64,000 bases of DNA. It comes from Oxalicibacterium solurbis. Its GTDB lineage: Bacteria; Pseudomonadota; Gammaproteobacteria; Burkholderiales; Burkholderiaceae_D. Positions 50,267 through 60,018 of the stretch are shown piece after piece. Made by a program: the position numbers and the translations under genes. Below the pieces are notes generated by a model. That model did no database searches, was not told the DNA's origin, and saw only the letters and a program-made list of their open reading frames with translations. Each line of letters begins with the position of its first letter. Positions within the stretch are counted from its first letter, which is position 1. Where the stretch lies: NCBI RefSeq assembly GCF_014635845.1, contig NZ_BMDP01000001.1, positions 62,001-126,000 on the forward strand. Reading direction: 5' to 3'.

Positions 50267-51715
50267 TTATTGCTTCGCCATCGGTGGCACATCCCCGCCC
50301 TGCTTTTGCGGCGCATCCCAGCCACCGCCCAGTGCACGAATCAAGCCGACCGATGCAACAGCACGCTGTCCCTGACTACGCACCAGAGCGCGCTCCGAAG
50401 CAAGCCGTGAACGCTGCGCATCGATGACTTCGAAATAGCTGGCCGAGCCATAGTGATAGCGCGAATCCGCCAGATTGTTCGCAAGCTTCGCCGAATCGAT
50501 CGCCTGTTCCTGGAACACCATCTGGCGATCCAGCGTGCGTAAGGCACTCAGATTGTCCTCGACGTCGCGGAAACCGACCAGCACCTGCTGGCGATAATTC
50601 GCAACCGACGCTTCATAGCCGGCATCGGCACGCGCCAGATTGGAACGATTACGGCCACCGTCGAAGATCGGCAGGTTCAGGATCGTGCCGGTCAACGGTC
50701 CAAGTATCCAGCTGCGGCTGGACCACTTGAACAGATCGCGCAATTCGTCCGACGCATAGCCGCCCGCACCAGTCAGCACCAGCGACGGAAAGAACGCAGC
50801 CTTCGCTGCACCGATGCGCGAACTGGCGGCCGCCATCCGGCGTTGCGCCTGTGCAATATCAGGACGACGTTCCAGCAGATCGGATGGCAAGCCTGCCGGC
50901 ACCGTCACCAGCGGTGCTTTCAGCAATGCCACAGGCAACGTGAACTGTGCTGGAGCCTGCCCCAGCAACACGGCCAGCGCATGATCACGCTGCGCACGTT
51001 CGCGACGCACACCTTCCAGTTCGGCGCTGGTCGTCGCCCATTCAGTGCGCGCCTGTGCGACATCCAGTTCGCTGGTATCGCCGGCATCAAATCGGTGCTT
51101 GGCGAGGTCCAGTGCTTCCTGGCGCAGTTCAACGGTTTTCTGCAGCACATCGGTTTCCGAATCCAGTGCGCGGATCGTGAAGTATTGCTGTGCGACGTCG
51201 GCTTGCAATGCCAGCAGCACGGAACGGTACGCCGCTTCCTGTGCCTGCGCATCGAGTGCTGCAGCGCGGCTGGCGTCCGACAGGCGGCCGAACAGATCGA
51301 CTTCATACGAGAAGCCCAGCTGCGCACGGTATTCGGTCGACGCACTCTGCTCATTACCGATTCGCGTCGGACCGAAGCCGGCACCGAGCTGGAAACCACG
51401 ATCGGCATCGACGACGCCGGCAATCGCACGCGCTTCCTTCACGTTCGCCAATGCGATTGCCAGATTCGGATTCGATTGCGTGGCTGCGACGACCAGTTTG
51501 CTCAGATCGTCGTCGCCGTACACCTTCCACCATTGGCCGCGATCCTGATCGTCGGCCGGCTTCGCGACCTGCCATGCGCCATCCAGCGACTCGGCCTTTT
51601 CGCGATAGGCGGCTGGCGTATCGACCTTGACCTGCTCCGGCGGACGCGCCGTCGAGCAGCCGGCGAGCACCATGGCAGCCGTCAACGCGGTGAGGGTCAG
51701 TTTGAATGTTTTCAT
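50267..51715 (-). CDS. RND outer-membrane lipoprotein channel (NodT/OprC-like)
   Basis: 482 residues. Lipoprotein signal with lipobox LAGC (C20), then two OEP repeats in the TolC fold (LALQADVAQQYFTIRALDSE and the equivalent FRDVEDNLSALRTLDRQ in the second half). It is the exit duct of the drug pump encoded upstream. The gene starts 2 bp after the pump stop, the last of the operon. By order and type it corresponds to OpcM/OprC of Burkholderia ceo/bpeEF loci. Confidence 0.9.
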   Translation of the reverse strand: MKTFKLTLTALTAAMVLAGCSTARPPEQVKVDTPAAYREKAESLDGAWQVAKPADDQDRGQWWKVYGDDDLSKLVVAATQSNPNLAIALANVKEARAIAGVVDADRGFQLGAGFGPTRIGNEQSASTEYRAQLGFSYEVDLFGRLSDASRAAALDAQAQEAAYRSVLLALQADVAQQYFTIRALDSETDVLQKTVELRQEALDLAKHRFDAGDTSELDVAQARTEWATTSAELEGVRRERAQRDHALAVLLGQAPAQFTLPVALLKAPLVTVPAGLPSDLLERRPDIAQAQRRMAAASSRIGAAKAAFFPSLVLTGAGGYASDELRDLFKWSSRSWILGPLTGTILNLPIFDGGRNRSNLARADAGYEASVANYRQQVLVGFRDVEDNLSALRTLDRQMVFQEQAIDSAKLANNLADSRYHYGSASYFEVIDAQRSRLASERALVRSQGQRAVASVGLIRALGGGWDAPQKQGGDVPPMAKQ

Positions 51716-51717
51716 TG

Positions 51718-54700
51718 TTATACCTCGTAGTTGTGCGGAACGTCGGTCGGAATCGCCGGATGATGCGGATAGGCTTCTTCCTCCGGATCGCGTTTCGGCG
51801 TCAGCTTGTTTTCCAGCGTACGCAACAGCACGTAGAAGATCGGCGTCAGGAACAGGCCGAAGGCAGTCACGCCGATCATGCCGGAGAACACCGCCACGCC
51901 CATTGCATGACGCATTTCCGCGCCGGCACCGGACGACAGGATCAGCGGCACGACACCGGCGATGAAGGCGATCGACGTCATCAGGATCGGCCGCAGACGC
52001 AAGCGTGCTGCCTCGATCGCCGCTTCATAGATGCCGCGGCCATGATCTTCCAGTTCGCGTGCGAACTCAACGATCAGAATCGCGTTCTTGCACGCCAGCC
52101 CCACCAGCACGATCAGACTGATCTGCGTGAAGATGTTGTTGTCGCCGCCGGTCAGGAACACACCGAAGATGGCAGACAGCAAGCCCATCGGCACGATCAG
52201 CAACACGGCCAGCGGCAAGGTCAGGCTTTCGTACTGCGCAGCCAGCACCAGGAACACCAGCAGCATCGACAGCGGCAGGATGATGAACAGCGTGTCACCG
52301 GCGATCTTGTCCTGATAGGTGATCTCGGTCCATTCGAAACCGATACCGCGCGGCAGCGTTTCGGCAGCAATGCGTTCGATCGCATCCTGCGCCTGGCCCG
52401 TGCTGTAGCCCGGTGCCGGACCGCCGTTCACGTCAGCCGACGGGAAGGCGTTGTAGCGGATCGCCTGATCGGGGCCATGGCTTTGCGTCAGCTTCAACAC
52501 GGACGACAACGGCACCATTTCGCCGGCAGCATTGCGCGTCTTCAGCAAGCCGATATCCTCGGCATGCGCACGGAACGGTGCATCGGCCTGCACGCGCACC
52601 TGGAAGGTACGGCCGAACTTGGTGAAGTCGTTCACGTACAGCGAACCCAGATAGATCTGCAAGGTATCGAACACCGACGGCACCGACACGCCCAGTTGTT
52701 GTGCGCGCGTACGATCCAGATCGGCAAACAATTGCGGCACGTTGATCTGGAAACTTGAGAACATGCCTTGCAGTTCCGGTGCGGCATTCGCCTTTGCCAT
52801 GAATGCCTTCAACGCATCGTTCAACGCTTCGTTGCCGAGCGCGGCGCGATCCTGGATCTGCAGCTTGAAGCCGCCGATCGTGCCCAGGCCCTGTACCGGC
52901 GGCGGCGGAAACATCGCGATGAACGCATCTTTGATGCCGGCGTATTTCTGGTTCAACTGCATCGCGATCGCATTGCCGCTCAATTCCTTGCTCTTGCGTT
53001 CGTCGAACGGTTTCAGCGTGACGAACACAATGCCGGAGTTCGGGCTGTTGACGAAGCCATTGATCGACAGGCCAGGGAAAGCCACTGCCGATTCCACGCC
53101 CGGCGTCTTCATCGCGATATCGGACATCTGGCGAATCACGTCTTCGGTGCGATCCAGCGACGAGGCGTCAGGCAACTGCGCAAAGCCGACCAGATACTGC
53201 TTGTCCTGCCCCGGCACAAAGCCTGCCGGCACGTGGTGGAACAGAAAACCGGTCACACCGATCAGCACTGCATACACGACCAGCGACGCCGACTTGCGCT
53301 TCAAAATGCTGGAGACACCACCGCCGTAATTGTCGGAACCGCGGTGGAACACCTTGTTGAAGCGTACGAAGAACCAGCCGAATGCCTTGTCGATCGCGAG
53401 CTGGAATTTATCCTTCGGCGCACCGTGGTTTTTCAGCAGCAAGGCAGACAATGCCGGCGACAGCGTCAGCGAGTTGAATGCCGAGATCACCGTCGAAATC
53501 GCGATCGTCAATGCGAACTGCTTGAAGAACTGGCCGGTCAGACCGGACACAAATGCCAGCGGCACGAACACCGCGCACAGCGTCAGCGCGATCGCAATGA
53601 TCGGGCCGGACACTTCGCGCATCGCCTTGTAGGTCGCTTCACGCGCCGTCAGGCCCGCTTCGATATTCCGTTCGACGTTTTCCACCACGACGATCGCATC
53701 GTCGACCACGATACCGATCGCCAGCACCAGCCCGAACAGACTCAAGGCATTGATCGAGAAGCCCAGCCCCAGCATCACGGCGAACGTGCCGATCACCGAC
53801 ACCGGCACCGCCAGCAACGGAATGATCGATGCGCGCCACGTTTGCAGGAACACGATCACGACGATGACGACCAGCAGGATGGCTTCCAGCAGCGTATGCA
53901 CGACCGCTTCGATCGATGCACGCACGAATTGCGTCGGGTCATAGACGATGCTGTAGTCCACGCCTTCCGGCATGTCTTTTTTCAACTCTTCCATCGTCTT
54001 GCGGACGTTGTTCGAGATTTCCAGCGCGTTGGAACCCGGCGACTGGAAAATCGGAATCGCCACCGCCTGCTTGTTGTTCAGCAGCGAACGCAATGCATAT
54101 TCGCTGGCGCCCAGCTCGATACGCGCGACATCCTTCAGCTTGGTGACGACGCCGTCCGGCGATGCCTTGATGACGATGTCGCCGAACTCTTCCTCGGTCT
54201 GCAGACGGCCGCGCGCATTGACGGAAATCTGGTAATCGACGCCCGGCACCGTCGGCGACGCGCCGATCACACCGGCTGCGACGTTGACGTTCTGCTCGCG
54301 AATCGCCTGCACGACGTCGTCCGCCGACAGGCCGCGCTCCGCTACCTTGCGCGGATCGAGCCAGATGCGCATCGAATAGTCGCCGGAACCGAACAGTTGC
54401 ACGGCGCCGATGCCCGGCAGACGTGCCAGCCTGTCCTTGACGTTCAGCACTGCGTAGTTACGCAGGTAGGCCATGTCGTAGCGGTCGTTCGGCGACAGCA
54501 AGTGCACCACCATCGTCAGGTCAGGCGAGCTCTTGGTCGTCGTCACGCCGAGGCGTTGCACGACATCCGGCAAGCGAGGCAGTGCCTGATTGACGCGGTT
54601 CTGCACCAGTTGCTGCGCCAGATCCGGCGGCGTACCGAGCTGGAAAGTGACGGTCAGCGTCATCAGGCCGTCGGACGTGGCCTGCGATTGCATGTACAGC

Positions 54701-54930
54701 ATGCCTTCGACGCCGTTGATCTGTTCCTCGATCGGCGTTGCGACCGTTTCCGCGATCGTCTGCGGATTAGCGCCGGGGAAATTGGCCTTGACCACGACCG
54801 ACGGCGGCACGACTTCCGGATATTCGGAAATCGGCAGGTTGAACATGGCGATCAACCCTCCCAGCAGAACGATCGTCGACAACACGCCCGCAAAGATCGG
54901 GCGGTCGATAAAGAATCTGGATATGTTCAT
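51718..54930 (-). CDS. HAE1-family multidrug RND pump (CeoB/BpeF-like)
   Basis: 1070 residues, proton-driven drug exporter of the inner membrane. N-terminus MNISRFFIDRPIFAGVLSTIV is the standard HAE1 start; helix 4 has the proton-relay pair in GIVVDDAIVVVEN near 409-410, unlike the DFG-containing metal pump at 3385-6522. Periplasmic porter domains include the PVPGVDYQISV-type loops. The C-terminus extends into a Glu/Pro-rich tail. Operates with the adaptor and channel beside it; substrates in relatives include chloramphenicol, trimethoprim and fluoroquinolones. Confidence 0.93.
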   Translation of the reverse strand: MNISRFFIDRPIFAGVLSTIVLLGGLIAMFNLPISEYPEVVPPSVVVKANFPGANPQTIAETVATPIEEQINGVEGMLYMQSQATSDGLMTLTVTFQLGTPPDLAQQLVQNRVNQALPRLPDVVQRLGVTTTKSSPDLTMVVHLLSPNDRYDMAYLRNYAVLNVKDRLARLPGIGAVQLFGSGDYSMRIWLDPRKVAERGLSADDVVQAIREQNVNVAAGVIGASPTVPGVDYQISVNARGRLQTEEEFGDIVIKASPDGVVTKLKDVARIELGASEYALRSLLNNKQAVAIPIFQSPGSNALEISNNVRKTMEELKKDMPEGVDYSIVYDPTQFVRASIEAVVHTLLEAILLVVIVVIVFLQTWRASIIPLLAVPVSVIGTFAVMLGLGFSINALSLFGLVLAIGIVVDDAIVVVENVERNIEAGLTAREATYKAMREVSGPIIAIALTLCAVFVPLAFVSGLTGQFFKQFALTIAISTVISAFNSLTLSPALSALLLKNHGAPKDKFQLAIDKAFGWFFVRFNKVFHRGSDNYGGGVSSILKRKSASLVVYAVLIGVTGFLFHHVPAGFVPGQDKQYLVGFAQLPDASSLDRTEDVIRQMSDIAMKTPGVESAVAFPGLSINGFVNSPNSGIVFVTLKPFDERKSKELSGNAIAMQLNQKYAGIKDAFIAMFPPPPVQGLGTIGGFKLQIQDRAALGNEALNDALKAFMAKANAAPELQGMFSSFQINVPQLFADLDRTRAQQLGVSVPSVFDTLQIYLGSLYVNDFTKFGRTFQVRVQADAPFRAHAEDIGLLKTRNAAGEMVPLSSVLKLTQSHGPDQAIRYNAFPSADVNGGPAPGYSTGQAQDAIERIAAETLPRGIGFEWTEITYQDKIAGDTLFIILPLSMLLVFLVLAAQYESLTLPLAVLLIVPMGLLSAIFGVFLTGGDNNIFTQISLIVLVGLACKNAILIVEFARELEDHGRGIYEAAIEAARLRLRPILMTSIAFIAGVVPLILSSGAGAEMRHAMGVAVFSGMIGVTAFGLFLTPIFYVLLRTLENKLTPKRDPEEEAYPHHPAIPTDVPHNYEV

Positions 54931-54975: not shown

Positions 54976-56202
54976 TCAGTTGGCCGCGATGACGTCGGCG
55001 CCCTTGCCTTCCGTCTTGAACAGCTGTGCCACGCGGGCGTCCATCGCCACCGTTTCCGGCGTCACCGTTTCGTTCGGACGAATGCGCTGCAGGCCGTTGA
55101 CGACGATGCGCTCATCCTTCTTCAGGCCGGTACGCACGACACGCAGGCCTTCGACGATCGGTCCCAGCGTGACCGGACGATAGGTCGCCTTGTTGTCGGC
55201 GCCGACCACCATCACGTATTTCTTGTCCTGATCGGTGCCGACCGCACGGTCGTCGATCAACAGCGCATTCTTGGCATTCGCGTCGCCGGTACGCACGCGA
55301 GCGAACATGCCCGGCGTCAGCGCGCCGTTGGCGTTATCGAACACGGCGCGCACGCGGATCGTGCCGGAACCGTTGTCGATGCGGTTGTCGAATGCCTGCA
55401 CATGTCCCTGGCGCGGATAGCCTTCCTCGCTGGTCAGGCCCATCGCCACCGGAATACGGTTGACGCCGCTGTTGCCGACCGCACCGGTTGATGCATAACG
55501 GATGTAAGTCGGCTCATCGACTTCAAAGCTGACGTACATCGGCGATACGGAAACAACCGTCGTCAATACCGGTGCGGTCGGGCCGGTCGTCACGAGATTG
55601 CCGACCGTGATTTCGGCGCGCGATACGCGGCCGGCTACCGGTGCGGTGATTTCGGTGTATTGCAAGTTCAGGCGTGCGGTCTGTACAGCAGCATCGGTCG
55701 CTTTCAGGTCGGCTTCGGCTTCGCGATAGGCGTTGTTGCGCGTATCCAGTTCACGTTGTGCGACGGCACGCTCTTCCAGCAGCTTGCGCGTACGCTCCAG
55801 CTCGGTCTTCGCCAGCGTCAGGCGCGCCTGTGCGCCGGCACGCGCGGCGTCGGCGCGTGCCAGTTCGGCCCTATACGGACGCGGATCGATGGTGAACAAA
55901 CGATCTCCTTTTTTCACCAGCTGGCCATCCTGAAAATGCACGGCGTCGATGGTGCCGGAGATGCGCGGACGGATTTCAACGCGCTCGATCGCTTCGACGC
56001 GCCCGGAGAAATCGTCCCATTCGGTGACCGAACGTTCGAGTACGGCTGCCACCGTGACCGGCGTGGCAGCCGGCGCTGCCTGCTGCGATTTTTCCGCGTG
56101 GCCGGAAAGCGAGACGGTCGCGGCGCCCGCGATGACCAGCACGCCGATGGCAATGGCGATGGCACTGCGAGAAAAACGCGATTTGTTTGTAGTGATCTTC
56201 AT
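54976..56202 (-). CDS. RND periplasmic adaptor (CeoA/BpeE-like)
   Basis: 408 residues with an N-terminal membrane anchor (about 12-33). Adaptor domains in order: ATPVTVAAVLERSVTEWDDFSGRVEAIERVEIRPRISG region (about 45-82), a coiled-coil hairpin (about 105-170), a lipoyl return strand ITAPVAGRVSRAEIT and the beta-barrel. It joins pump and channel. 45 bp before the pump gene, 126 bp after the lipase-like gene, all on one strand. Confidence 0.91.
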   Translation of the reverse strand: MKITTNKSRFSRSAIAIAIGVLVIAGAATVSLSGHAEKSQQAAPAATPVTVAAVLERSVTEWDDFSGRVEAIERVEIRPRISGTIDAVHFQDGQLVKKGDRLFTIDPRPYRAELARADAARAGAQARLTLAKTELERTRKLLEERAVAQRELDTRNNAYREAEADLKATDAAVQTARLNLQYTEITAPVAGRVSRAEITVGNLVTTGPTAPVLTTVVSVSPMYVSFEVDEPTYIRYASTGAVGNSGVNRIPVAMGLTSEEGYPRQGHVQAFDNRIDNGSGTIRVRAVFDNANGALTPGMFARVRTGDANAKNALLIDDRAVGTDQDKKYVMVVGADNKATYRPVTLGPIVEGLRVVRTGLKKDERIVVNGLQRIRPNETVTPETVAMDARVAQLFKTEGKGADVIAAN

Positions 56203-56328: not shown

Positions 56329-57132
56329 TCATCCAGGGTCGTTGATGAATTGCGAAACCGTCGCAACGATGATTGGAAAATCCGGGTGATCCGGCTGCAG
56401 CAGCCGGCGCGACGATCCTTCCAGCCTGCGCATGTGTACCGGCACGCCGGCGACGATCAGCCGTGTCGCATACTGTTCGGCTTCGTCGCGCATGGCATCG
56501 CTTTCGGTGCTGACGATCAGCGCCGGTGCCAGATCCGCAAGGCGGCGCGATTGCGAAGGAGCGGCATACGGATGCAGTGCATCGCCGACGGCGGGCAAGT
56601 AGGCGGCCCAGCCTTCGCGGCAGATGCATTCGCCGGATGCATGCATCGACGACGAGGTCTGGTGCGGATCCAGCATCGGCGTGATCAAGACCTGCCCTTT
56701 CAACCGAATGCTGCGACCGTTCGGCATGACGCGGTCACGCGCCATCATTGCCGCGGCCGCTGCCAGATTGCCGCCAGCCTGATCGCCGGCGACGAACATG
56801 CGCTTGCCATCGGCACCGTACGCATCTGCATGCTCACGTGCCCACAGCAGCGCCGCGAACGCCAGCTCGGCGGTATCGGGAAATTGCATGGTCGGTGCCA
56901 GCGGATAATCGACGGTGACGACGATCGCGCTATCGGCCAGGGCCGCGGCGATACCGTCCGCATCGTCGGCACGGCCGCAATCGAAATAACCGCCATGGAA
57001 ATAGACGATCAGCGGCAGGCCGGTCTTCTCGGCATGGCGGCCAGAACGATGGCCAAACACGCGCAGCGAAATTTCCCGTCCCGCATGGCGGAACGATGCC
57101 AACGCCGAAGCCTGTCGCACTGCCAGTTCCAT
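56329..57132 (-). CDS. lipase-like alpha/beta-hydrolase fold protein, nucleophile replaced (LlpE-like)
   Basis: 267 residues of the hormone-sensitive-lipase type fold. The oxyanion motif HGG is present in YFHGGYF, but the nucleophile elbow, normally GDSAGG, reads GDQAGG: the codon is CAG, so Gln replaces the catalytic Ser. LIVSTESDAMRDEAEQY keeps the acid region, and a clear catalytic His is not evident near the end. It is probably not a hydrolase. Its place ahead of adaptor, pump and channel matches llpE of the Burkholderia ceo operon (from memory). Starts 2 bp after the small gene upstream. Confidence 0.82.
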   Translation of the reverse strand: MELAVRQASALASFRHAGREISLRVFGHRSGRHAEKTGLPLIVYFHGGYFDCGRADDADGIAAALADSAIVVTVDYPLAPTMQFPDTAELAFAALLWAREHADAYGADGKRMFVAGDQAGGNLAAAAAMMARDRVMPNGRSIRLKGQVLITPMLDPHQTSSSMHASGECICREGWAAYLPAVGDALHPYAAPSQSRRLADLAPALIVSTESDAMRDEAEQYATRLIVAGVPVHMRRLEGSSRRLLQPDHPDFPIIVATVSQFINDPG

Positions 57133-57134
57133 GA

Positions 57135-57317
57135 TTACTGACGCTCCGCCGCGGTCTGAGCAAGGTTGCCGACAGCCATCGTGGCATTGGCCCAGACGGC
57201 GCCGCCCGTCAATGCGCTGTCATAGACAAGATCCGACACCGCCGGATTGTGCAACGCGGCAGAGATTGCCAATGTGCCAGCGGCGACGGCCGTAAATTGA
57301 TAGAGACGTGTTTTCAT
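57135..57317 (-). CDS. 60-residue exported or membrane small protein
   Basis: 60 residues: MKTRLYQFTAVAAGTLAISAAL has a basic start and a hydrophobic stretch (about 7-22) fitting a signal peptide or membrane helix, followed by an Ala-rich part (GGAVWANATMAVGNLAQTAAERQ). Not recognised. It ends 2 bp before the lipase-like gene and is the first gene of the RND operon. Its close coupling and normal base composition argue that it is real. Confidence 0.62.
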   Translation of the reverse strand: MKTRLYQFTAVAAGTLAISAALHNPAVSDLVYDSALTGGAVWANATMAVGNLAQTAAERQ

Positions 57318-57584: not shown

Positions 57585-58217
57585 ATGGAAATAGAGACAA
57601 AAACCGAAGACAAGCCGCGCAAAAAGGCCGGACGCCCTCTTTCCTTCGACCGCGATGCGGCGCTGGAACGGGCGATGCTTGTCTTCTGGCGTTACGGTTA
57701 CGAGGCAGCCTCGCTGCAGGAATTGACGTCGGCAATGGGTATTACACCTCCCAGCCTGTATGCGGCATTTGGTGATAAGGAAAAGCTGTTCCTCGAAGCC
57801 GTCGAACGTTATTCATCCAAGAATTGCGATGCATTGCAGTGCCTGTTTGCGGCAGCGCCCACGGCGCGCGATGCGATCGAACGCCTGCTGCAAAGCAATG
57901 CGATCGAACTCACCTGCCCCAGCCATCCGCCCGGTTGCCTGGTTGTCACTGCTGCCACCAATTGTTCCGCGTCTTCCGCGCACGTGCAGAGCGCGATGGT
58001 CGAGCGGCGCGACAATGTGGAAAGCATGATTCGCACACGCATCGAAGAAGGCATACGCGACGGCGAACTGGCGCGGGATACCGATGCCGGCGCTCTCGCC
58101 AATTTTTACAATACGGTGATTCAGGGCATGTCCACGCAAGCCCGCGACACAGGTGGTAATCGCGACAAGCTGCTCGCCATTGCATACACTGCGATGCGCG
58201 CCTGGCCTGCAAGATAG
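57585..58217 (+). CDS. TetR-family regulator (AcrR-like)
   Basis: 210 residues. A Lys/Arg-rich N-terminus (KPRKKAGRPLSFDRDAALERAMLVFW) leads into the HTH YGYEAASLQELTSAMGITPPSLYAAFGDKEKLFLEAV at about 43-80. The ligand domain contains HPPGCLVVTAATNCSAS, typical of the TetR group near GST/oxidoreductase and efflux genes. Divergent from the RND operon, with two dyads between; likely its repressor. In Burkholderia the equivalent locus uses a LysR protein instead. Confidence 0.88.
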   Translation: MEIETKTEDKPRKKAGRPLSFDRDAALERAMLVFWRYGYEAASLQELTSAMGITPPSLYAAFGDKEKLFLEAVERYSSKNCDALQCLFAAAPTARDAIERLLQSNAIELTCPSHPPGCLVVTAATNCSASSAHVQSAMVERRDNVESMIRTRIEEGIRDGELARDTDAGALANFYNTVIQGMSTQARDTGGNRDKLLAIAYTAMRAWPAR

Positions 58218-59103: not shown

Positions 59104-60018
59104 ATGGACCGTTTCGATACAATGTTGGCCTTCACCCGCGTGGTGGAATTGAAAAGCTTCACCAAGGCGGCGATGTCGCTGAACCTGCCGAAGGCGACGG
59201 TCTCCGCGCAGGTGATCGCGCTGGAAAAACGTTTGCGCGTCAAGTTGCTCAACCGCACGACGCGCCACGTCAGCGTGACGCCGGATGGCGCCGGCTATTA
59301 CGAACGCGCAGTGCGCCTGCTGGCAGAACTGGATGAAACCGAAGCAGCCGTCAGCCACGCAGCGACGTCGCCGAAAGGCCGTTTGCGCGTGGATGTTCCC
59401 GGTTCGGTCGGACGCTGCATCATTGCACCGGCACTGGCGGACTTTTTCGAACGCTATCCGGAGATCGATCTGGAACTGGGTTGCACCGACCGCCCCGTCG
59501 ATCTGGTACACGAAGGCATCGACTGCGTGATCCGCGGCGGTGAAATCAACGACGAATCGCTGGTTGCGCGCCGGCTCGGCGATTTCCGCATGCGCACTTT
59601 CGCGGCGCCTGCGTATCTGAAAAAGCATGGCGAGCCGCGCAATCTGGAAGAGCTTGAACGCCACCAGTTGATCCTGTTCGCCTCGTCAAAAACCGGCAAG
59701 ATATTTCCGATGATCTACGAACAGGATGCAGTGCAAACTGCCGCCCAGGGAATACGCCGCGTCTCGGTCAACGATGCCGATGCATTGGCCGCCGCCGCTT
59801 GCTCCGGTATCGGCCTCGCACAGCTGCCAGATTACATCGCGTGTGAATATGTGGCGTCAGGCCAGCTGGTGCCGGTGCTGGACGGTCTTCTGTCGGAGCA
59901 TGTGCCGTTCTGGATTCTCTATCCACCCAATCGCCACCTGTCGACCAAGGTGCGCGCGTTCGCCGAATGGGCGGCAGAATTGTTTGCAAAGACGGAAATG
60001 GGCGCGCGACCGCTCTGA
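59104..60018 (+). CDS. LysR-family regulator
   Basis: 304 residues: HTH MDRFDTMLAFTRVVELKSF to about 60 with LNLPKATVSAQVIALEKRL as recognition part, then an inducer domain starting GRLRVDVPGSVGRCIIAP near 93. CrgA-like subgroup. The frame is open far upstream but that part is antisense to the GST gene; the ATG at 59104 gives the standard length. Divergent from the GST, which it may regulate. Confidence 0.9.
   Translation: MDRFDTMLAFTRVVELKSFTKAAMSLNLPKATVSAQVIALEKRLRVKLLNRTTRHVSVTPDGAGYYERAVRLLAELDETEAAVSHAATSPKGRLRVDVPGSVGRCIIAPALADFFERYPEIDLELGCTDRPVDLVHEGIDCVIRGGEINDESLVARRLGDFRMRTFAAPAYLKKHGEPRNLEELERHQLILFASSKTGKIFPMIYEQDAVQTAAQGIRRVSVNDADALAAAACSGIGLAQLPDYIACEYVASGQLVPVLDGLLSEHVPFWILYPPNRHLSTKVRAFAEWAAELFAKTEMGARPL

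What the first reader, a model, noticed from the sequence alone, without database searches (positions are those of the whole stretch)
56329..57132. Pseudo-lipase in a drug-efflux operon: Ser nucleophile changed to Gln
The elbow reads GDQAGG (codon CAG) instead of GDSAGG in an otherwise normal fold with HGG intact. Being kept between a small protein and an RND pump implies a non-hydrolytic job, such as binding an inducer or a substrate. LlpE of the Burkholderia ceo locus is the likely relative, so the same change there would mean a conserved pseudoenzyme.
Basis: partly seen in the sequence, partly recalled or inferred. Interest (0 to 1): 0.7.

Follow-up and report, generated by a model that had tools for sequence, protein, structure and literature searches.

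The report
Serine-less lipase look-alike beside efflux pump
A gene beside a multidrug efflux pump encodes a protein folded like a lipase but lacking the serine that such lipases use, and every pump-linked relative sampled, the LlpE 'lipase-like' protein of Burkholderia included, lacks it too, so this protein family is probably not made of ordinary lipases.

Summary
Confirmed and extended. [quoted passage not shown] The catalytic His is also missing at its aligned position and the N-terminal cap is short; the triad Asp and HGG motif remain. Gene order: small protein, this protein, adaptor, RND permease, outer-membrane channel. It is no one-off: 148 of 148 pump-adjacent loci (some fetched twice) carry Asp, Glu or Gln and none Ser; the Ser-type relatives read (33 and 40 loci) showed no pump genes in the flanks held and keep His. 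Burkholderia cenocepacia LlpE, next to ceoA, has GHDAGG. On a 98-row tree Ser proteins form one side of one branch, so Ser was probably lost once. Asp types keep the His; Glu and Gln types lost it, two Glu rows excepted. dN/dS is 0.05-0.16. Best reading: an accessory, non-hydrolytic ligand binder derived from an esterase, comparable to plant GID1. Binding, ligand and partner are inferred, not shown. It is dispensable: 7 of 12 pump operons in the genus lack it.

The parts
56329..57132 (-). LlpE-type pseudo-lipase (HSL fold, 267 aa)
56779..56781 (-). codon CAG, Gln118 at the nucleophile position (GDQAGG)
56989..56997 (-). HGG oxyanion motif (H46-G48), intact
56497..56499 (-). Asp212, triad acid, intact
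56386..56388 (-). His249, in the loop before the last helix; His in 14 of 16 pump-adjacent Q-type rows, Cys in the other two (L047, L136); not at the aligned catalytic-His column
57135..57317 (-). 60-aa small protein, ending 2 bases before the LlpE start; found at 12 of 12 adaptor loci of the genus
54976..56202 (-). RND periplasmic adaptor (MexE-like; below the MexE cut-off)
51718..54930 (-). RND permease (NCBIfam NF000282, above its cut-off)
50267..51715 (-). outer-membrane channel (TIGR01845, NodT type)
57585..58217 (+). divergent TetR-type regulator
59104..60018 (+). LysR-type regulator two genes away; LysR is the regulator found divergent beside LlpE in many relatives

Best explanation
The protein is a member of the LlpE family: HSL-fold proteins descended from an esterase that probably lost its nucleophilic Ser once, and that have since been kept beside MexEF/OqxAB-type RND pumps without it. 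Shown by sequence: no Ser, no His at the aligned position, short cap, fold and oxyanion loop kept, purifying selection, near-constant linkage to the pump. Inferred: it does not hydrolyse esters, is cytoplasmic, is made together with the pump, and binds a small hydrophobic or aromatic molecule (a pump substrate or inducer) in the old active-site pocket. It would then buffer or hand over that molecule, or report its presence, in the way that plant GID1, also derived from the HSL family, became a receptor. It is an accessory, not a pump part.
For: Elbow and His changes. Pump-adjacent loci: 148 of 148 non-Ser; Ser-type loci: 33 of 33 not pump-adjacent and 40 of 40 with no adaptor, permease or channel match in the flanks fetched, up to about 1.6 kb and in some cut by contig ends. 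Ser on one side of one branch, support 96/94. Synonymous codons vary at the site within E (GAA 52, GAG 50) and D (GAT 13, GAC 11) while the residue stays. dN/dS 0.050-0.157 in 12 of 12 pairs. Model pLDDT 93.0; the 50 listed PDB matches are entries of esterases or lipases, chloramphenicol-binding EstDL136 among them. S156A and H282A inactivate EstDL136 (PMC6333409 passages). GID1 is described as a non-catalytic receptor related to HSLs (PMC3531792 passages) and is hit by sequence. Weak N-terminal hydropathy (0.42 against 2.68 for the adaptor; rough measure, no signal-peptide predictor). LlpE deletion leaves drug efflux unchanged (passages).
Against: No ligand, partner or assay is known. The HGG motif and the triad Asp, not needed for mere binding, are kept in nearly all rows. 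The D clade keeps a full Asp-His-Asp set, which a pure binder would not need. No effect of deletion on efflux is reported, and 7 of 12 pump operons of the genus lack the gene, so any role is conditional. Most Q-type rows keep a nearby His249 whose distance from Q118 could not be measured. All 12 Q sequences use CAG, so codon variation says nothing for Gln itself, and the one dN/dS pair with the window gene has saturated dS (2.2). The literature calls LlpE periplasmic, and B. cenocepacia LlpE scores 1.30 in the same hydropathy measure.
Confidence: 0.5

Rival explanations
1. The ancestral pump-linked form is an enzyme with an Asp nucleophile: D-clade LlpE (Burkholderia and others) works with Asp-His-Asp, as haloalkane dehalogenases and epoxide hydrolases do (the motif resemblance, GHDWGG, is recalled, from no call), and the Glu and Gln forms, the window's included, are later degenerate or repurposed copies.
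For: All 24 D-type loci keep the His and the acid, while of the E and Q types only two rows (L148, L149) have a His in that column; D is one clade, support 100/99; elbow GHDAGG or GDDAGG.
Against: D, E and Q clades share the pump context and the invariant residues H187, Y189 and R197, suggesting one shared job that does not need the His. The D-His pairing is one phylogenetic contrast. Whether any characterised HSL-family enzyme has an Asp nucleophile was not checked.
Confidence: 0.2
2. A protein-protein scaffold or chaperone for the pump or the regulator, with the pocket irrelevant.
For: Invariant residues H187, Y189 and R197 (100% of 74 LlpE-type rows against 17%, 17% and 0% of 24 Ser rows) could be an interface; in one genome a LysR-like gene and LlpE persist without the pump (L228).
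Against: Oxyanion motif, acid and elbow glycines are kept; 7 of 12 pump operons in the genus do without it.
Confidence: 0.15
3. A passenger gene on its way out.
For: Absent from 7 of 12 pump operons of the genus; one orphan Q-type copy (L147/L231) has Asn for the triad Asp and a short ATG-started frame.
Against: dN/dS 0.05-0.16; no internal stops in the matches listed.
Confidence: 0.07
4. Residual catalysis through another residue (D117, H249 or a general-base route).
For: H249 is kept in 14 of 16 pump-adjacent Q rows; the acid and HGG are kept.
Against: H249 is Cys in two rows; it lies 12 residues after the last strand of the model, against 5 for the His of the D-type model.
Confidence: 0.05

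Closest known systems
LlpE of Burkholderia ceoAB-opcM / bpeEF-oprC
   Same: HSL-type protein directly upstream of a MexE-like adaptor and RND permease; non-Ser elbow; on the same side of the tree
   Different: LlpE has Asp (GHDAGG) and keeps His; the Burkholderia operon has a divergent LysR (literature), the window a divergent TetR plus a small protein; 42% identity
EstDL136, chloramphenicol-hydrolysing HSL esterase (6AAE, 6IEY)
   Same: among the nearest solved folds (Foldseek ranks 3, 4, 5 and 7, 32-34% identity); triad acid and HSL fold
   Different: EstDL136 has Ser156, His282 and a 40-residue N-terminal cap; the window protein lacks Ser and the aligned His and has a short N-terminus
GID1 gibberellin receptor
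   Same: non-catalytic receptor derived from the HSL family; detectable by sequence (E 1.6e-14)
   Different: GID1 lost the His but uses its Ser and Asp to hold the ligand; the window protein lost Ser too; GID1 closes a lid over the ligand, here the N-terminal cap is short; no ligand is known

Membership tests
HSL / Abhydrolase_3 esterases | alpha/beta-hydrolase fold of the HSL type | tested here: met
   Pfam 165 bits; AF2 pLDDT 93.0 and top Foldseek matches
HSL / Abhydrolase_3 esterases | Ser nucleophile in GxSxG | tested here: not met
   GDQAGG
HSL / Abhydrolase_3 esterases | catalytic His after the last strand | tested here: not met
   the aligned column holds Gln; H249 lies elsewhere. Geometry not measurable here
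HSL / Abhydrolase_3 esterases | triad Asp and HGG oxyanion motif | tested here: met
   D212, H46-G48
HSL / Abhydrolase_3 esterases | N-terminal cap of about 40 residues | tested here: not met
   45 residues before HGG in the window protein; medians 57 (D, n 21), 51 (E, n 82), 51.5 (Q, n 10) against 88 (Ser, n 25), first-ATG starts
LlpE | early gene of an adaptor-permease-channel RND operon | tested here: met
LlpE | groups with Burkholderia LlpE apart from Ser-type HSLs | tested here: met
   tree: the Ser group is one side of one branch, 96/94, drawn with a midpoint root; order search: LlpE types 219 bits or more, the rest 213 or less. In the phylum search the scores overlap (Ser-type L175 225, Glu-type L178 214)
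LlpE | divergent LysR regulator adjacent | tested here: not met
   TetR is adjacent; a LysR lies two genes away
GID1-like receptor | binds a ligand without hydrolysis and signals | not testable with these tools
   needs a binding assay
Asp-nucleophile hydrolase | Asp at the nucleophile position with His | tested here: not met
   the window protein has Gln and no aligned His; D-clade relatives meet it by sequence

The most novel reading that the evidence does not exclude
LlpE proteins are bacterial small-molecule receptors, born from an esterase by one loss of Ser, that bind pump substrates in the cytoplasm and feed back on the neighbouring regulator or load the pump; this would be a bacterial counterpart of GID1 and a candidate for the unidentified factor that PMC5587915 invokes for substrate-mediated induction of BpeEF-OprC persisting without BpeT and BpeS (passage).
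Probability: 0.18. Interest if true: 0.8.

Novelty: new variant of a known kind. Interest (0 to 1): 0.56.

Why it matters
LlpE is described in print as a putative lipase or carboxyl esterase of Burkholderia efflux operons, conserved but without known function (passages). None of the pump-linked members sampled here has the residue that such an enzyme uses, so the question shifts from 'what does it hydrolyse' to 'what does it bind' (or, for the Asp clade, 'does it use an Asp nucleophile'). It also gives a natural series, Ser to Asp, Glu or Gln, with and without His, for studying how an enzyme becomes a non-enzyme. In the passages read on LlpE the missing Ser is not mentioned, and searches for it listed no paper on it; those lists were capped (20 of 84, 8 of 33 and 15 of 1,206 shown), one listed paper (PMC3352902) was not opened, and the 2004 paper describing LlpE was not found in the library.

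Tried and rejected
Sequencing error or a single decayed copy: rejected, relatives share the change. Ser-type HSL beside a pump: looked for, none among 33 plus 40 Ser loci; flanks were about 1.5 kb for most and some end at contig ends, so a more distant pump is not excluded. Two 'D' entries in the counter (L209, L210) are false first regex matches; their elbow is GDSAGG. The His in the 40 loci was seen by regex in 37 and by eye in the printed tails of the other three. The first alignment had minus-strand loci in the wrong orientation and was redone. Non-Ser loci without an adaptor within 900 bases: 6; wider reading found the pump about 1.6 kb away for one (L144/L229), and none in the DNA held for L013/L228, L146/L230, L147/L231 and L008/L050, which last two are one place. 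Plasmid search: 267 records matched, 40 listed, 10 opened: 9 pump-linked and non-Ser, 1 (Variovorax, L040) Ser and without a pump. In the order and phylum samples only high-scoring hits were read. Bit score alone does not separate the types in the phylum sample: L175, a Ser type, scores 225, above the pump-linked L149 (219) and L178 (214). The tree used 98 of 187 sequences after an 80% identity filter. The structure alignments used the window plus 44 (A2), and L098, the window plus 29 (A3), of the 80 named loci. Active-site distances could not be measured, as no coordinates are given out.

Full report
What is there. The minus-strand ORF 57132-56329 (267 aa) is a hormone-sensitive-lipase-type alpha/beta hydrolase (Pfam Abhydrolase_3, 165.4 bits; NCBIfam LipP1 178 and chloramphenicol hydrolase 135 bits, both below their cut-offs). 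Its nucleophile elbow is GDQAGG, with Gln118 coded by CAG at 56781-56779. H46-G47-G48 of the oxyanion loop and Asp212 of the triad are present. The catalytic His is not at the aligned column; a His249 lies in the loop before the last helix. The protein has 45 residues before HGG; LlpE types have medians of 51-57 and Ser-type relatives 88 (first-ATG starts; n 21, 82, 10 and 25 for D, E, Q and S), so most of an N-terminal cap such as EstDL136 has (40 residues; PMC6333409 passages) seems to be missing. N-terminal hydropathy is low (rough measure), whereas the literature calls LlpE periplasmic (PMC1557404 passage).

Surroundings. On the minus strand follow a MexE-like adaptor (56202-54976), an RND permease (54930-51718; 1477 bits to NCBIfam NF000282, cut-off 1250) and an outer-membrane channel (51715-50267). 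Upstream, two bases before the LlpE start, ends a 60-aa protein (57317-57135); a TetR gene (57585-58217) is divergent. The own genome has one other relative at E <= 0.001, a Ser-type HSL (L002).

Relatives. In 245 genomes of the family, 152 had a match at E <= 1e-20, generic HSLs included. In the genus, the 4 other genomes with an orthologue (60-62% identity) all read GDQAGG. Of 267 plasmid records matched, 40 were listed and 10 opened: 9 are pump-linked and non-Ser, 1 (Variovorax, L040) is Ser-type without a pump. LlpE of B. cenocepacia, upstream of a gene annotated ceoA, reads GHDAGG; two Comamonadaceae plasmid copies read GEEAGG and Azospirillum B510 GHDAGG.

Linkage against Ser. Over the 187 loci held at that point (some are one place fetched twice): pump-adjacent E 108, D 24, Q 16, S 0; not adjacent S 33, E 3, Q 3. 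Deduplicated, 166: pump-adjacent E 96, D 24, Q 10; not adjacent S 31, E 3, Q 2. A further 40 lower-scoring order hits all had Ser, a His in the C-terminal tail, and no adaptor, permease or channel match in the flanks fetched. In the order search (399 genomes) the 31 hits of 219 bits or more, in 28 genomes, were all non-Ser; the hits of 213 bits or less that were read had Ser. In the phylum search (398 genomes) 4 newly read pump-linked members have Glu (L172-L174, L178), 12 others have Ser and no pump, and the scores overlap: Ser-type L175 has 225 bits, Glu-type L178 214.

Evolution. A 98-row tree puts Ser on one side of one branch (96/94), D as one clade (100/99) and Q as one clade (100/95); E needs 3 changes. 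The four labels together need 3 changes, the least possible, against a shuffled mean of 42.1. The drawing is midpoint-rooted; if the root lies among Ser proteins, Ser was lost once. All 24 D-type loci keep His; of the E types only L148 and L149 have a His in that column; no Q type does. The D-His association is a single phylogenetic contrast. Codons vary synonymously at the site within D and E, while all 12 Q sequences use CAG. dN/dS is 0.050-0.157 in all 12 pairs computed; the one pair with the window gene has saturated dS. H187, Y189 and R197 are in all 74 LlpE-type tree rows against 17%, 17% and 0% of 24 Ser rows.

Structure. AlphaFold2 with 45 rows gives pLDDT 93.0, pTM 0.92. The 50 listed Foldseek matches are entries of esterases or lipases (EST2, EstDL136, rPPE first). 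Sequence search of solved structures also reaches GID1. The D-type model (L098) has pLDDT 87.7; its His comes 5 residues after the last strand, whereas the window model has a 14-residue loop with His249 12 residues after the strand. Distances could not be computed.

Regulators. Of 10 upstream regions read, 7 show a divergent LysR-like gene, 4 of them checked with Pfam; Glaciimonas has an AraC type instead. LysR is annotated beside three plasmid copies. In the window genus TetR is divergent at 12 of 12 adaptor loci, and the window keeps a LysR two genes away.

Dispensability. Of 13 genomes of the genus 12 have the adaptor. All 12 have the small protein and the divergent TetR, but only 5 have LlpE. 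Published passages state that llpE is cotranscribed with bpeEF-oprC and that its deletion affects neither efflux function nor specificity for known antibiotics (PMC5587915, citing unpublished data; PMC4396416).

Mechanism. Shown: no Ser, no aligned His, conserved fold, selection, linkage. Inferred from EstDL136 mutants (S156A and H282A inactive) and chemistry: the window protein does not hydrolyse esters (about 0.9). Inferred more weakly: it binds a small molecule in the old pocket and acts as an accessory buffer, carrier or sensor for the co-expressed pump (about 0.5). GID1 is the precedent for an HSL turned receptor (PMC3531792 passages). The main rival is that the D clade is an Asp-nucleophile enzyme.

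Verdict. It is an unreported property, as far as the capped searches of the held library go, of a known but unexplained family; the 2004 paper describing LlpE was not found in the library.

Noticed in passing
57135-57317 (-): A 60-aa protein with a hydrophobic N-terminus and a DSALTGG-like motif, no Pfam match, sits before the adaptor at 12 of 12 adaptor loci of the genus, more constant than LlpE; possibly a small pump-associated peptide.
   Followed up: partly
59104-60018 (+): A LysR regulator lies two genes away, with a TetR and a GST gene in between; LysR is divergent beside LlpE in many relatives, as if the adjacent regulator had been exchanged.
   Followed up: partly
L228:4607-6746: A LysR-like gene and a Glu-type LlpE are kept where no pump is found in the 16 kb held; a Yip1-domain gene follows.
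   Followed up: partly
L231:10030-10695: Orphan Gln-type copy without a pump nearby, with Asn for the triad Asp and a short ATG-started frame; looks like decay.
   Followed up: partly
L034:7250-9239: In Mycetohabitans the Asp-type LlpE frame is intact while the adaptor and permease behind it look shortened or broken.
   Followed up: no
L049:4351-5328: In Glaciimonas the upstream divergent regulator is AraC type, a third regulator class beside LlpE.
   Followed up: no
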